Position numbers and translations under genes: made by a program. A stretch of DNA of 39,744 bases from a virus. Within the stretch, counting starts at the first letter, position 1. Each line of letters begins with the position of its first letter. Shown one piece after another: positions 214 through 10,105 of the stretch. Under the pieces are notes generated by a model. That model was given only the letters and a program-made list of their open reading frames with translations. It ran no database searches and was not told the DNA's origin. The stretch is from positions 1 to 39,744 of the IMG/VR virus record IMGVR_UViG_3300050821_002890; one strand, written 5' to 3'.

Positions 214-357
214 ATGACCAAAAAAGAGTTTATCGAGGTTTTGCGGAAAGCAGTATCGTTCCGAGCAAAGAAACAAACCGCTCCTTGTCGCTGTATCGGT
301 TGTTCCGCAAAAACACAAAGCCGTCCAAGTACTCCTGCAAATACTTCCGAGAAATAA
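214..357 (+). CDS. Possible truncated ORF antisense to the transposase end
   Basis: This 47-codon plus-strand frame begins MTKKEFIEVLRKAVSF, a plausible native N-terminus, behind a TATAAT element 6 nt upstream. From about codon 7 it runs opposite the 3' end of the transposase gene (stop at 230-232), and its C-terminal half (Cys, Ser and Thr rich) looks like antisense noise. It may be the stump of a gene cut by the insertion, or simply chance. No function can be proposed. Confidence 0.25.
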   Translation: MTKKEFIEVLRKAVSFRAKKQTAPCRCIGCSAKTQSRPSTPANTSEK

Positions 358-1105
358 CCTTGTGCGTTCCCGTGATGCTCCGCTTCAAGTGCGACCAGAA
401 ACCGTCTATCGTGTTTGAGTGAACATCGCCACGCACATACTCGCCCTTGTGATGGTCTACCTCGTGCCGATTGAAACTCTTTGCGGCGTTATCAAGGCGG
501 TTGGTTGCGTCCGTCATTAGCCGAGTGCCTTTCGGCTCCACGGTTTCGGCAAGGAACTCGCTATGCGTCTTTGCAGTGCTGTCTGGCACGACTTTGAGCC
601 GAGCGTTGCCTTTCCTGTCCACCGCTCCCATAACCACGACTTTCGCCGCAATCGCTTCTTTCTGCTTCTCGTTATTTTTGCCGCTCCTGAAACGGCCGCC
701 GAAATACGCCGTGTCCATTTCCACATCCCCTTGGAGCTTGCCCGACTGCTTCAACGCAGATCGGATGAGGTGCAACATCCTCCATGCCGTCTTGTAGCCC
801 ACTTCAAGCTGTCGCTCCATCTCCTTTGCGCTTATTCCGCTCTTGGCGTTCGAGAAAGCGAGGATGGCTTTGAACCATAGCGTAATGGGCGTGTCGCTCT
901 TGTGGAAGATGGTATTAGCGGTTGGGGCTATCTGGTATCGGCACTTGGAGCATTGGAACTGCCTACGCCCCGTTTTGAGGGCATAGCGACCACCGCAGGA
1001 ACATTCCTTGGTATGCTGTGCGAGGAAGATAAACTCCAAGCACTTCTCGTCTGTGGGGAAGTCCCGTGCCAAACTCCTAATTCCATATCGGTTTATGCGT
1101 TTCAT
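230..1105 (-). CDS. IS1595-family (ISXO2-like) transposase
   Basis: The 291-residue protein has an N-terminal zinc ribbon (C35, C37, C52, C55) and an ISXO2-like transposase domain. Motifs are DTAYFGG (D131), LMTDA (D199) and HSNTIDGFW (N231, D234), followed by LKR and a GTHKVISRKYLQ segment, matching the usual order of the family. I chose the ATG at 1105 because the upstream in-frame ATG at 1141 lies in the methyltransferase gene, while 1105 follows its stop codon by one base. That coupling is unusual for a transposase. It is apparently full length, with no frameshift. Confidence 0.85.
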   Translation of the reverse strand: MKRINRYGIRSLARDFPTDEKCLEFIFLAQHTKECSCGGRYALKTGRRQFQCSKCRYQIAPTANTIFHKSDTPITLWFKAILAFSNAKSGISAKEMERQLEVGYKTAWRMLHLIRSALKQSGKLQGDVEMDTAYFGGRFRSGKNNEKQKEAIAAKVVVMGAVDRKGNARLKVVPDSTAKTHSEFLAETVEPKGTRLMTDATNRLDNAAKSFNRHEVDHHKGEYVRGDVHSNTIDGFWSHLKRSITGTHKVISRKYLQEYLDGFVFLRNNRYSDKERFVSLLGTILLSAKPR

Positions 1106-1106
1106 T

Positions 1107-1679
1107 TTAATAGTTCCATTGTTCCGCCATAGCATCGGCAATGCCTTGGAATGTCTTACTGCGCTCTTTCCACCTGTCTGGCCCAGGCGGCAGGTAATGA
1201 AGCCGCCCCTGTTTGTTCGCTGGCAGTTTTAGCATTTCTTCTTTTACGTCATTCGTGGCAATCAGCTTTGGAAGTCCTTTGAGCCAAAGGCAGGTGGTTT
1301 TCCTTTCGGGATGCCCGAACATATAGGGGTGGATAATCTGATCTGGTTTGCGTATTTTCGTGCTGATAACGCTAACGGGATTTTCAAGACAGATTTTCGG
1401 AATGTCGCAGGTAAGCAGGTATCGCACAAACCTCAATGCGGCCGCTTGTTCAACTTGCTTATTTTTGAACCACGCCGCACCACTTACCGCCAAATGAGTG
1501 CAGGGAGGATGCGCAATCATCATATCCCAACCATCCTCCAAAACATCCAAAACATTCCCTTGGATATGAGGGCCGGGAATGTCCGTAGGAAGCAGGTCAC
1601 AGGACACCGCATTATGACCTTTTGCCCGAAACGCCTCCCGCACCACGCCGCTATATTCACACGCTATTAGTATTTTCAT
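1107..1679 (-). CDS. C5-type DNA cytosine methyltransferase-like protein
   Basis: The 190-residue protein starts with KILIACEYSGVVREAF, a SAM-binding-like segment, followed by HPPC at 57-60 (motif IV with the candidate nucleophile Cys60) and LENP at 98-101 (motif VI-like). It is much shorter than a full C5 methyltransferase and has no obvious target-recognition domain, like many short phage versions. Likely role: modification of phage DNA against restriction. Its ATG lies 6 nt after a TATAAT, so the mRNA is probably leaderless. The transposase gene follows one base after its stop. Confidence 0.7.
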   Translation of the reverse strand: MKILIACEYSGVVREAFRAKGHNAVSCDLLPTDIPGPHIQGNVLDVLEDGWDMMIAHPPCTHLAVSGAAWFKNKQVEQAAALRFVRYLLTCDIPKICLENPVSVISTKIRKPDQIIHPYMFGHPERKTTCLWLKGLPKLIATNDVKEEMLKLPANKQGRLHYLPPGPDRWKERSKTFQGIADAMAEQWNY

Positions 1680-4027: not shown

Positions 4028-4288
4028 TTATATCTTGTTTATATCATCTAGTTTTTTAGATATTCTTTTTAGTGATTCAAGATTTTCGCTAAAGTCTACT
4101 CCCGCAATCGTGTTATCATTGCCCGCGCCGGGAAGTAACTCACTTGCCAAGATTATTGCCCATTCAAGCGCCGCCTGATACCCTTTGGTTTCTATCTGTG
4201 CTTCCGCGCTTTGCCAATTCCTTGCCCGCTCCCTTCGTAATTCTTCCCGAAAAGAAGAAACAAGATGTTCGATGTTTTGTATTTTCAT
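4028..4288 (-). CDS. Hypothetical early protein (86 aa)
   Basis: This is the second gene of the copy A early operon. Its ATG overlaps the stop of the 35-residue membrane gene (ATGA). The sequence is predicted helical (VSSFREELRRERARNWQSAE) with no recognised domain. In the sister operon at 39634 the gene in the same position is unrelated in sequence. Confidence 0.6.
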   Translation of the reverse strand: MKIQNIEHLVSSFREELRRERARNWQSAEAQIETKGYQAALEWAIILASELLPGAGNDNTIAGVDFSENLESLKRISKKLDDINKI

Positions 4289-4392
4289 TTGATTATTAAT
4301 CCAACCACCGCGCCTACGATCATGAACACAAATCCCCAGAACACTGCTTTATTTTGTTTCGACCTGTCTTCTTCGATGTATTCGATTTCCAT
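4285..4392 (-). CDS. Small single-TM protein, copy A (35 aa)
   Basis: The peptide has a charged N-terminus (MEIEYIEEDRSKQNK) and then a hydrophobic segment (AVFWGFVFMIVGAVVGLIIK) long enough for one membrane helix. It is the first gene after the early promoter at 4439-4467. Copy B at 39631-39738 differs only at the last few residues (GLIIK versus GFLIK), and the retained reading frame supports function. It could be a small membrane regulator, exclusion protein or holin-like peptide; this is unknown. Confidence 0.7.
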   Translation of the reverse strand: MEIEYIEEDRSKQNKAVFWGFVFMIVGAVVGLIIK

Positions 4393-4458
4393 TGGACTTT
4401 TTTTATTTTATTTGGGGTTCGACCTTCCACCTACATCCATCATACCCTATCGCTTGCC
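4301..4458. repeat. Direct repeat copy A (158 bp)
   Basis: This block is identical to 39647-39744 joined to 39-98. It covers most of the small membrane-protein gene, its leader and the promoter up to the dyad. The sequences flanking it on both sides differ, so it is a duplicated operon head and not a longer duplication. Confidence 0.95.
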
Positions 4459-4467
4459 CTGATGCAA
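4439..4467 (-). promoter_or_regulatory. Early sigma70-like promoter, copy A
   Basis: TTGCAT (4467-4462), 17-bp spacer and TATGAT (4444-4439) on the minus strand. A dyad GCTTGC-N6-GCAAGC covers the -35 and part of the spacer, with a further TTGCATTAGGGC half-site copy just upstream. It drives the small membrane gene and the ERF/SSB operon below. Confidence 0.7.
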
Positions 4468-4500
4468 GCCCTAATGCAAGGCTAAGTTATGCACACCCTT

Positions 4501-5444: not shown

Positions 5445-5693
5445 TTATTTTTTTATTTCTTTTTTCAATCTCTCAATAGCATCTTCTTCGTTTTTTCCCC
5501 TTACGCTTATAGTCCTCAGTCCTCCATCTAATTGCGCCCAAGCTCTCCATGGATATTCCCTTAAAAGATTTTGCGTATCCCAATTCACATATAACGATTT
5601 ACTTACTTCTTCTATCGTCATCGGCGGCGATAATTCTAAACCCGCAAACTCAGACATATTCTCTATTTCTTTTTGTAATTTTTCGCTAATCAT
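5445..5693 (-). CDS. Type II antitoxin HicB-like small protein
   Basis: The 82-residue protein contains YPWRAWAQLDGGLRTISVRG then NEEDAIERLKKEIKK, which loosely resembles the half RNase H-like fold of HicB-type proteins (a strand, Gly, helix pattern with the EDAIERLK helix). No HicA-like partner is beside it. The match is by pattern only and it may be an unrelated small phage protein. It overlaps the 32-residue ORF upstream (ATGA). Confidence 0.35.
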   Translation of the reverse strand: MISEKLQKEIENMSEFAGLELSPPMTIEEVSKSLYVNWDTQNLLREYPWRAWAQLDGGLRTISVRGKNEEDAIERLKKEIKK

Positions 5694-5788
5694 TTTTTTG
5701 CCGATTTTTCTAATAACATTTCCGATCTAAGAATCTTGAAGGTAGAATCCGTGGCTTTGAAGTTTTTAACCCGTCCCCGAATTTTCAT
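5690..5788 (-). CDS. Possible small basic protein (32 aa)
   Basis: An ATG at 5788 opens MKIRGRVKNFKATDSTFKIL and ends with a TGA that overlaps the next ATG, the coupling style seen throughout this genome. TCAGGGA lies just before the ATG, a short spacing for ribosome binding. Small size limits confidence. Confidence 0.45.
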   Translation of the reverse strand: MKIRGRVKNFKATDSTFKILRSEMLLEKSAKK

Positions 5789-5900
5789 TCCCTGAATCCC
5801 CCACCTCGGTTCCGATTATTTCATAATCGTCCCCTACCCCCTTTTCCGCAAAGTTTGGAGATAGGCGCGGGAAACTATAGCAGTTGGATATGCTATCGAA
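5766..5900 (-). other. Open frame without a start codon
   Basis: A 44-codon frame between a TAG at 5903 and a TAA at 5766 reads FDSISNCYSFPRLSPNFAEK and ends in an acidic Gly/Asn-rich tail. It looks like the C-terminus of a real protein but has no ATG, TTG or usable GTG. It overlaps the 3' part of the structured RNA region. It could be a gene remnant, a downstream exon or chance. Confidence 0.25.
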
Positions 5901-6209
5901 CTATTTAATTGCTATGTTCCGCCGGAAATTTATGGAAACAAAATTGATAACTCCCTGAGCGTAGGATTGATTGGATGTTTTTATTAGGGAGTGCTACGAG
6001 AATTAAAATCGCTCTATGCCCTTATGCACAGATTTGCACTCATGGTGTGCGTATTCAATATATTCCGCCTCATCCTTCAATCCTACATTCAAAGAGCTAC
6101 CAATTAAAAAACCCTTTGACTGGGCTACCCAGCGAAATTAATCGCCTGATAGCACCGTCAAAAGGTTCTCCGATGCTATAACCCAGTCGCAATCTTTCGT
6201 GAAGATTAC
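5870..6209 (-). ncRNA. Candidate structured RNA (about 340 nt), unknown class
   Basis: Downstream of a consensus promoter there is no credible ORF, but many helices. They include a hairpin 6202-6207/6191-6196; a closing stem 6182-6188/6118-6124 around hairpins 6171-6179/6149-6157 and 6142-6146/6131-6135; an 11-bp pairing from the hairpin loop (6157-6167) to 6110-6120; a 10-bp helix 6077-6086/5961-5970 extended by 6071-6075/5973-5977; a 7-bp helix 5986-5992/5950-5956 interleaved with it; and a hairpin 5891-5896/5877-5882. It does not show the signature sequences I know for tmRNA, RNase P RNA or group I introns. The 3' end is a guess. Confidence 0.5.
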
Positions 6210-6215
6210 ATGAAG

Positions 6216-6244
6216 ATTGTAGCGCACCCGAAAAAATAAGTCAA
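6216..6244 (-). promoter_or_regulatory. Consensus promoter of the structured RNA
   Basis: TTGACT (6244-6239), exactly 17 bp, TACAAT (6221-6216). The predicted start is near 6209, where the first hairpin begins two bases later. It lies just downstream of the 74-residue gene that ends at 6250. Confidence 0.8.
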
Positions 6245-6249
6245 GGGGG

Positions 6250-6474
6250 CTAATTCTCAAGCAATACTCCTGTTTCCATATACCAGTTAGCGATGAACTC
6301 TGCCCTTACGCTCTGGGCTTTCTTTATCCGCGCTATATATCCTTTTGCTGGATGGATGCGACGATTCGATAACTCCCGCATATGGATCGGGCGGCAGGGG
6401 ATGCAGTAAAGTTGACTTCCGTGGGAAGGCCAAAAAGGTTTTTTACAACGATTGCATAAAGGATGTTCTCTCAT
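6250..6474 (-). CDS. Zinc-finger-like small protein (74 aa)
   Basis: The protein has CNRCKKPFWPSHGSQLYCIPC, a four-cysteine CxxC...CxxC zinc motif like HNH or ribbon domains, followed by a basic stretch. The ATG overlaps the stop of the muramidase gene by 4 bases. Function unknown. Confidence 0.6.
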   Translation of the reverse strand: MREHPLCNRCKKPFWPSHGSQLYCIPCRPIHMRELSNRRIHPAKGYIARIKKAQSVRAEFIANWYMETGVLLEN

Positions 6475-8962: not shown

Positions 8963-10105
8963 TTATTTTGCAGCTGGAGGAAGGTCTGCGCCCTGCACTG
9001 AAGCATTCTGAACGCCCGCGACGTGGAAGTATGAAGCTAATATGGTGAAGATACCATCGAGGATGACTGAGTACTGTGGCGGCACTGACGGAGAGGCCAA
9101 CTGCCACACATTGTATGCAAAAGTCACAAGCAATGTGTAGAACGTGCGACTCTTAAAAATCGAATAATTCATTTGATTTGATGATTCACGACCTTTGAAT
9201 ATCTGGGAAAGTTTCGATAGCCAGTTGGAAACTTGGTCTATGAGAATCTGTATCTGACTAGGGGTGGCAGTCACGGGCGTTACGTTTGGAGGGAGCGAAG
9301 GCGTAGGAGGGATAGGGGTAACGATGCCTTGTAAGGCGAAGTTAATGGGATACCCCGCAACAAGTTCTTTCGGATTGGGCAAATAATGATCGTAAATCCA
9401 TGCGTTATTGTTTGCGATGCGATAATTCATCACACAGTGTCCCGGTGCTTCAGTCACTCCCGGCGCAGGAGGGGTGACAGAGTTCCAGTTCGATCCCACA
9501 TTAACACCGATACATAACGGCGCATTCGCAAGAGCATGAATCATATTTTGTATATTCTCTGACCCATTACAGACCCAATGATATTTTATCGCATTTGTGC
9601 CACCAATTTTTGATAGAAATAATGAAGCTTTATCTAAAAGTGTCTGGGGAATGGGATTTAGATATTCTCCAATCGGCACATTCACGGGAAGATCAGTATA
9701 GGGTAAAGCTCCATATTTCCGAAGCACATCCCATGCGTCTTGGACTGAGTTGCCGTTAAAACCATTTCCTGTTAAAACCTGAATGAATCTTGGAGATGTA
9801 TGAAAATGTGGATGGCCGTCGATTCCCGTGTCCATATAACCGTTAAGGGTAAACCATTCCATTACGGAGGGGTCTATAAGACCGTTCTGAATTAAATATT
9901 CTATTTGTGCATCGAATGATTCTTGCGCGGTAAAAAGTACACAACCGTTAGAATCTCCCCCGACGAGCATCTGTCGTTCAAAAAATTCCACATAGGGTAA
10001 CCAATCACCCGTTGAGAGAACTGCTTTTAGCGTCACGTTTCCATCGCCCATTAGATAATCCGTGGAACGTGGTTTGATAATTAAATCTTTGTGGTCAGTG
10101 TTCAT
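8963..10105 (-). CDS. Papain-like cysteine peptidase with C-terminal membrane domain
   Basis: The 380-residue protein has a C1A-like layout: Cys55 in DSNGCVLFTAQ, His223 in APGHCVMNYRI and NAWIYDHY as the third-residue region. A Pro-rich linker (about 264-282) leads to a helix and two hydrophobic segments (about 320-338 and 346-364). The peptidase could cut peptide cross-links as an endolysin; the tail could anchor it or act as a holin-like module. I chose the ATG at 10105, which overlaps the XhlA-like stop (ATGA), over the ATG at 10171. Role in lysis is inferred from neighbours. Confidence 0.6.
   Translation of the reverse strand: MNTDHKDLIIKPRSTDYLMGDGNVTLKAVLSTGDWLPYVEFFERQMLVGGDSNGCVLFTAQESFDAQIEYLIQNGLIDPSVMEWFTLNGYMDTGIDGHPHFHTSPRFIQVLTGNGFNGNSVQDAWDVLRKYGALPYTDLPVNVPIGEYLNPIPQTLLDKASLFLSKIGGTNAIKYHWVCNGSENIQNMIHALANAPLCIGVNVGSNWNSVTPPAPGVTEAPGHCVMNYRIANNNAWIYDHYLPNPKELVAGYPINFALQGIVTPIPPTPSLPPNVTPVTATPSQIQILIDQVSNWLSKLSQIFKGRESSNQMNYSIFKSRTFYTLLVTFAYNVWQLASPSVPPQYSVILDGIFTILASYFHVAGVQNASVQGADLPPAAK

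What the first reader, a model, noticed from the sequence alone, without database searches (positions are those of the whole stretch)
5870..6244. Unknown structured RNA with two interleaved helix pairs
A TTGACT-17-TACAAT promoter starts a stretch of about 340 nt with no credible gene but with at least eight helices, including an 11-bp loop-to-3' pairing (6157-6167 with 6110-6120) and a 10-bp helix interleaved with a 7-bp helix (6077-6086/5961-5970 with 5986-5992/5950-5956). Such pseudoknotted architecture is typical of functional RNAs (ribozymes, riboswitches, large phage ncRNAs).
Basis: partly seen in the sequence, partly recalled or inferred. Interest (0 to 1): 0.8.

Follow-up and report, generated by a model that had tools for sequence, protein, structure and literature searches.

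The report
New phage RNA family with switch-like terminator
This phage stretch encodes a small structured RNA that belongs to a so far undescribed family, found in at least 20 versions in mostly unrelated uncultured phages, whose folded core ends in a built-in transcription terminator and often sits beside a DnaA (replication) site, which makes it a testable candidate for replication-linked RNA control in phages.

Summary
The observation largely holds. The RNA lies on the minus strand (5'->3' from high to low coordinates): promoter TTGACT-17-TACAAT (6244-6216), then a core of about 105 nt (6210-6106). Minus-strand folding is far from chance (z -7.6; best local z -9.2).

No Rfam family matches. 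From synteny, pattern scans and covariance models I found 20 distinct members in uncultured phage contigs and two small-genome MAGs. All share a 5' hairpin, a three-way junction (stems A, B, C) and a pairing D between the B loop and the strand 3' of A, directly before a U-run. A, B, C and the 5' hairpin covary at every pair (overall score 0.80 against 0.20 shuffled). One dinucleotide is complementary to both the A and D partner strands in 20/20 members, so A and D compete there.

The second claimed pseudoknot (5950-6086) is not supported: a nested stem explains it, and homologues lack it.

Seven of 15 members tested have a DnaA-box-like site just upstream of the promoter (0.06 expected); the window's own copy does not. 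Best reading: a free-standing, replication-linked phage RNA with a conditional terminator. Family and fold are shown; function is inferred.

The parts
6239..6244 (-). -35 hexamer TTGACT
   Evidence: spacer 17
6216..6221 (-). -10 hexamer TACAAT; ends 5-7 nt before the 5' hairpin, as in most homologues
6188..6210 (-). 5' hairpin P0 at the predicted transcription start
   Evidence: pairing probability about 1; P0 covaries at all 5 modelled pairs in homologues
6182..6188 (-). stem A, 5' strand (GACTGGG)
   Evidence: covaries at all 7 pairs over 20 sequences
6172..6179 (-). stem B, 5' strand (ATAGCATC)
   Evidence: covaries at all 7 modelled pairs
6157..6167 (-). helix D, 5' strand (AACCTTTTGAC), in the loop of B
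   Evidence: sequence-conserved, with covarying inner base pairs
6149..6156 (-). stem B, 3' strand (GGTGCTAT), directly abutting D
   Evidence: sequence
6131..6146 (-). stem-loop C (GCGA-TTAATT-TCGC; GNRA-type loop in most homologues, not here)
6118..6124 (-). stem A, 3' strand (CCCAGTC); its last two bases (6119-6118, TC) also pair with the end of D5
   Evidence: three-strand identity in 20/20 members
6110..6120 (-). helix D, 3' strand (GTCAAAGGGTT)
6106..6111 (-). U-run after helix D: intrinsic-terminator-like end of the conserved core
   Evidence: U-run present in every member (tails)
5943..6104 (-). long hairpin HP2 (about 33 bp plus branched apex), downstream; seen in the window, not part of the conserved family
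5775..5841 (-). G-run-rich stretch (GGGGG, GGGG, GGGGG, GGGG) downstream of the core
   Evidence: strand-specific enrichment over members 24 against 7.9 expected

Best explanation
It is a free-standing phage RNA gene of a new family. RNA polymerase starts at a sigma-70-type promoter, often beside a DnaA-box-like site. The RNA first folds into P0 and the A/B/C three-way junction, holding the D5 strand in the B loop. When the 3' end emerges it pairs with D5, competing with stem A for a shared dinucleotide, and forms the helix before the U-run that ends transcription. The core is therefore a conditional terminator. Stopping releases a ~100-nt RNA; reading through transcribes a G-run-rich non-coding stretch of roughly 130-550 nt. 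I infer that this couples an RNA (or transcription itself) to the start of phage DNA replication, as lambda pO/oop or plasmid pre-primer RNAs do. Shown: family, strand, helices, A/D competition by sequence, promoters, site enrichment. Inferred: conditional termination, DnaA binding, the replication role, the identity of any trigger.
For: Covariation over 20 distinct sequences: 94.6% standard pairs, score 0.802 against 0.202 in shuffles and about 0.1 when slid. A/D three-strand identity in 20/20 with four different dinucleotides; best of 100,000 shuffles 16; the models did not contain helix D. RNA truncated before D3 folds mostly into A/B/C, while the full core favours nested D in most members. 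The -10 box ends 5-7 nt before P0 in most members; promoter scores of 9 or more in 11 of 21 rows against 2% of background positions. DnaA-like box at -75..-31 in 7/15 members, 0.06 expected. Downstream G-runs on the RNA strand 24 against 7.9 expected. Not a leader everywhere: in G441, G432 copy 1 and G028 the neighbouring genes lie on the other strand, and in G037 the next gene has a promoter-like sequence of its own. RNA within 100-600 nt of the GC-skew minimum in G029, G037, G439, G436 and G432 copy 2.
Against: The window itself has no DnaA-like box near the promoter, and about half the members have none. GC-skew minima also mark divergent operons, so they are weak evidence for an origin; G028 fails that test. 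Some GC-rich members are related, so the counts are not fully independent. No expression, termination or replication data exist. D may simply be the terminator of an sRNA that acts in trans, with no switching. Energies ignore pseudoknots, and two members (L230, L291) favour the A-state.
Confidence: 0.4

Rival explanations
1. A trans-acting small RNA that binds a protein or another RNA; helix D with its U-run is only its terminator and the A/D overlap is incidental packing.
For: Own promoter, ~105 nt, U-run, opposite strand to neighbours in three phages; highly structured core with GNRA-type loops in most members.
Against: An incidental overlap would not be expected to be kept in 20/20 members with four different dinucleotides. 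Compact phage genomes keep about 130-550 nt of non-coding DNA after the U-run, which a 105-nt sRNA does not explain.
Confidence: 0.27
2. A cis-acting leader (attenuator, riboswitch-like or put-like antiterminator) controlling the early or packaging operon downstream.
For: In the window, L138, L170, G029 and G435 the RNA stands at the head of a co-directional operon. Three-way junction plus competing terminator is riboswitch-like in form.
Against: In G441, G432 copy 1 and G028 no co-directional gene follows, and G037 has a second promoter-like sequence before the gene. No invariant ligand-pocket nucleotides outside D. One phage carries two copies.
Confidence: 0.2
3. A large ornate phage RNA or ribozyme covering the whole 5870-6244 stretch.
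For: The long hairpin at 5943-6104 is very stable; downstream z -5.4 in the window, -4.5 in G005.
Against: The downstream part is not conserved in sequence or fold in homologues (model R1 finds nothing). No Rfam match.
Confidence: 0.08

Closest known systems
Phage lambda oop RNA / pO promoter beside ori-lambda
   Same: A short phage RNA from its own promoter; inactivating pO lowers lambda plasmid copy number, and DnaA-box-like sites protected by DnaA lie near it (PMC3985674).
   Different: From general knowledge, oop is antisense to a gene and has no three-way junction or loop-to-3' pairing; lambda's boxes lie downstream of pO, here upstream of the -35. No direct sequence comparison was made.
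RNA-based origins of mycobacterial extrachromosomal prophages (Alma, LadyBird, RedRock)
   Same: A phage region expressing a non-coding RNA is required for stable extrachromosomal prophage replication (PMC7157519).
   Different: The passages read describe no RNA structure; those are actinobacterial phages with parABS. No homology was tested.
ColE1 RNA II / RNA I plasmid replication control
   Same: A structured 5' part followed by a G-tract on the RNA strand (general knowledge); the G-run enrichment here is similar in form.
   Different: No antisense partner RNA identified here; different fold; no Rfam match.
Transcription-attenuating riboswitches
   Same: A junction that folds first and competes with an intrinsic terminator.
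   Different: No conserved ligand pocket seen; not always followed by a co-directional gene.

Membership tests
Any Rfam 15 family | Covariance-model score at or above the gathering score | tested here: not met
   Window: none; at E<=10 only matches far below the gathering scores; six homologue loci none; seven more only an unrelated tRNA at E<=0.5
This new family (models R2/R3) | P0 + A/B/C junction + loop-to-3' helix D + U-run, with covariation | tested here: met
   Window 66.6 bits, E 9.6e-10 (the window is one of the sequences the model was built from); covariation
Lambda oop-like / replication-linked phage RNA | Own promoter next to DnaA sites | tested here: inconclusive
   Family: 7/15 with a DnaA-like box; the window itself: none
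Lambda oop-like / replication-linked phage RNA | Effect on phage or plasmid replication | not testable with these tools
   needs an experiment
Cis-acting attenuator/riboswitch | Always precedes a co-directional gene | tested here: not met
   G441, G432 copy 1, G028; gene calls there are simple ORF picks
Cis-acting attenuator/riboswitch | Mutually exclusive pairing with the terminator | tested here: met
   (by sequence and energy, not by experiment)
ColE1-type RNA pre-primer | RNA-strand G-tract downstream of a structured 5' part | tested here: inconclusive
   enriched over members, but absent in G436 and G037

The most novel reading that the evidence does not exclude
A previously unknown RNA-controlled replication origin of phages, some of them probably of small-genome (Patescibacteria-like) hosts: DnaA-linked transcription, a three-strand conditional terminator, and a read-through transcript with G-tracts that primes or activates DNA replication.
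Probability: 0.25. Interest if true: 0.92.

Novelty: new variant of a known kind. Interest (0 to 1): 0.77.

Why it matters
This is a strongly covarying phage RNA family that Rfam lacks, in phages whose hosts have mostly not been grown. Its terminator is part of the fold, and a competing dinucleotide is kept in every member, so switching can be tested with a handful of point mutations. The DnaA-site association gives a concrete hypothesis for RNA control of phage replication.

Tried and rejected
BLAST of the region against phages and plasmids: chance matches only. Neighbour proteins as bait (lysozyme, NinG-like): no relatives. Model R1 of hairpin 5943-6104: no homologues in 49 other phage records or 287 genomes. 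Three exact 16-mers: no hit confirmed by R1. One search with a wrong handle and one repeat search on the minus strand failed. L169 and L172 were left out as weak. tRNA, tmRNA, group I/II intron and large ornate RNAs: no support. A plus-strand reading was rejected: the minus strand is far more stable.

Full report
What was checked. The finding names a promoter and several helices in 5870-6244. The listed promoter and helix order only make sense on the minus strand, and that is where the signal is. Minus 5890-6250 folds at -126.8 kcal/mol (z -7.64) against -97.4 (z -3.23) on plus. A window-wide local-fold scan puts minus 5933-6229 first of all (z -9.2). The credible genes of this 39.7-kb phage record are also on minus: a 74-aa ORF ends at 6250 and the next gene starts at 5693. 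The small ORFs inside the stretch match no family. No Rfam family matches.

How homologues were found. Terminase relatives included L138, a contig of a MAG with a genome of about 1.2 Mb. A sensitive profile search found there a similar sequence at 141-263, at nearly the same distance upstream of the terminase gene (the distance in the window is measured round the circle). The two sequences shared AGAACCTTTTGA...TCAAAGGGTTTTTT, with different flanking stems that still pair. A gapped pattern for that pair gave L170, L171 and L173. I trimmed variable linkers of five sequences to common lengths to obtain a gap-free structural alignment. On it 21 of 23 nested pairs changed on both sides (this alignment was fitted by hand, so it leans towards the structure). 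Model R2 then found members that the pattern could not have found (G037, G028, weak G029), which is independent confirmation. A wider pattern plus R2 and R3 brought the set to 20 distinct members.

The fold. On the 20 sequences, 94.6% of cells pair; the covariation score is 0.802 against 0.202 for shuffles and about 0.1 for slid partners. All 23 pairs of P0, A, B and C show changes on both sides. Helix D is conserved in sequence in its outer eight pairs. That is partly because most members were found through it, but G028, G037 and G005, found by model, vary there with pairing kept at most positions. In one search the model columns misplace a base of the G005 row, so it counts as unpaired there; the sequence itself pairs ACTCTTTTCA with TGAAAGGAGT.

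Three strands, one partner. The dinucleotide just before AAAGGG is complementary to the first two bases of A5 and to the last two of D5 in all 20 members, with four versions (GA, CA, GG, CG; A5 in L185 and L192 is read one base over from the model column, so that stem A pairs in register). The models treat these D bases as unpaired, so this was not built in. Shuffling D5 ends among members never reached 20 (best 16 in 100,000). A and D therefore compete for two bases. RNA ending before D3 folds mostly into A/B/C, and the full core prefers nested D in most members (L230 and L291 prefer the A-state). That is what a conditional terminator would look like, but no experiment shows switching.

What does not belong. 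There the partner strand pairs in a nested stem with probability near 1, model R1 of this hairpin finds no homologue, and downstream regions of other members are only weakly structured on average (mean z -1.65).

Surroundings. In most members the -10 box ends 5-7 nt before P0, so transcription should start at P0. A DnaA-box-like 9-mer lies at -75 to -31 in 7 of 15 members placed in larger records, where 0.06 were expected. The window has none there. RNA-strand G-runs in the 420 nt downstream are enriched threefold against the same strand of the same genomes (24 against 7.9). The RNA is not always a leader: neighbours lie on the other strand in three cases, and G037 has a promoter-like sequence before the next gene. 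GC-skew minima coincide with the RNA in five records, but divergent operons alone would do this, and in others the skew is monotonic. Two members come from MAGs with genomes of about 0.6 and 1.2 Mb.

Interpretation. Established: a new structured RNA family, its strand, likely start, core fold and A/D competition by sequence. Inferred: conditional termination and a replication link, modelled on lambda pO/oop (PMC3985674) and on RNA-based prophage origins (PMC7157519). A plain trans-acting sRNA and a cis-acting attenuator remain serious rivals. Literature searches showed no description of this family among the papers listed, in a library that lacks most subscription journals.

Noticed in passing
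window 4284-4470 and contig ends 39630-39744 / 1-110: A ~187-bp sequence at 4284-4470 matches, at 96-97%, the two contig ends read across a 38-bp exact end repeat; the record is probably circular, with a direct repeat flanking a stretch that holds an IS1595-type transposase gene and an ERF gene.
   Followed up: partly
window 230-1141 minus: IS1595/ISXO2-type transposase inside the phage record.
   Followed up: no
L108 17560-17810, 18080-18380 and 15441-15757 (phage G005): Several further strongly structured intergenic stretches (z -7 to -9) near the lysozyme-like gene of this relative; R3 does not list them as members of the family.
   Followed up: partly
IMGVR_UViG_3300033571_006685 (G432) 2207-2298 minus and 9950-10036 plus: Two copies of the RNA in one phage, on opposite strands and with different stems.
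   Followed up: partly
L258 2201-2273 (phage G436): A tRNA gene lies several hundred nt downstream of the RNA.
   Followed up: no
L138, L170 and G437 contig ends: In these three contigs the RNA lies within about 50-260 nt of the contig end, which may point to genome termini or assembly breaks at this site.
   Followed up: no
window, G432 copy 1, G433: The RNA lies within about 2 kb of an SLT-lysozyme-like gene.
   Followed up: no
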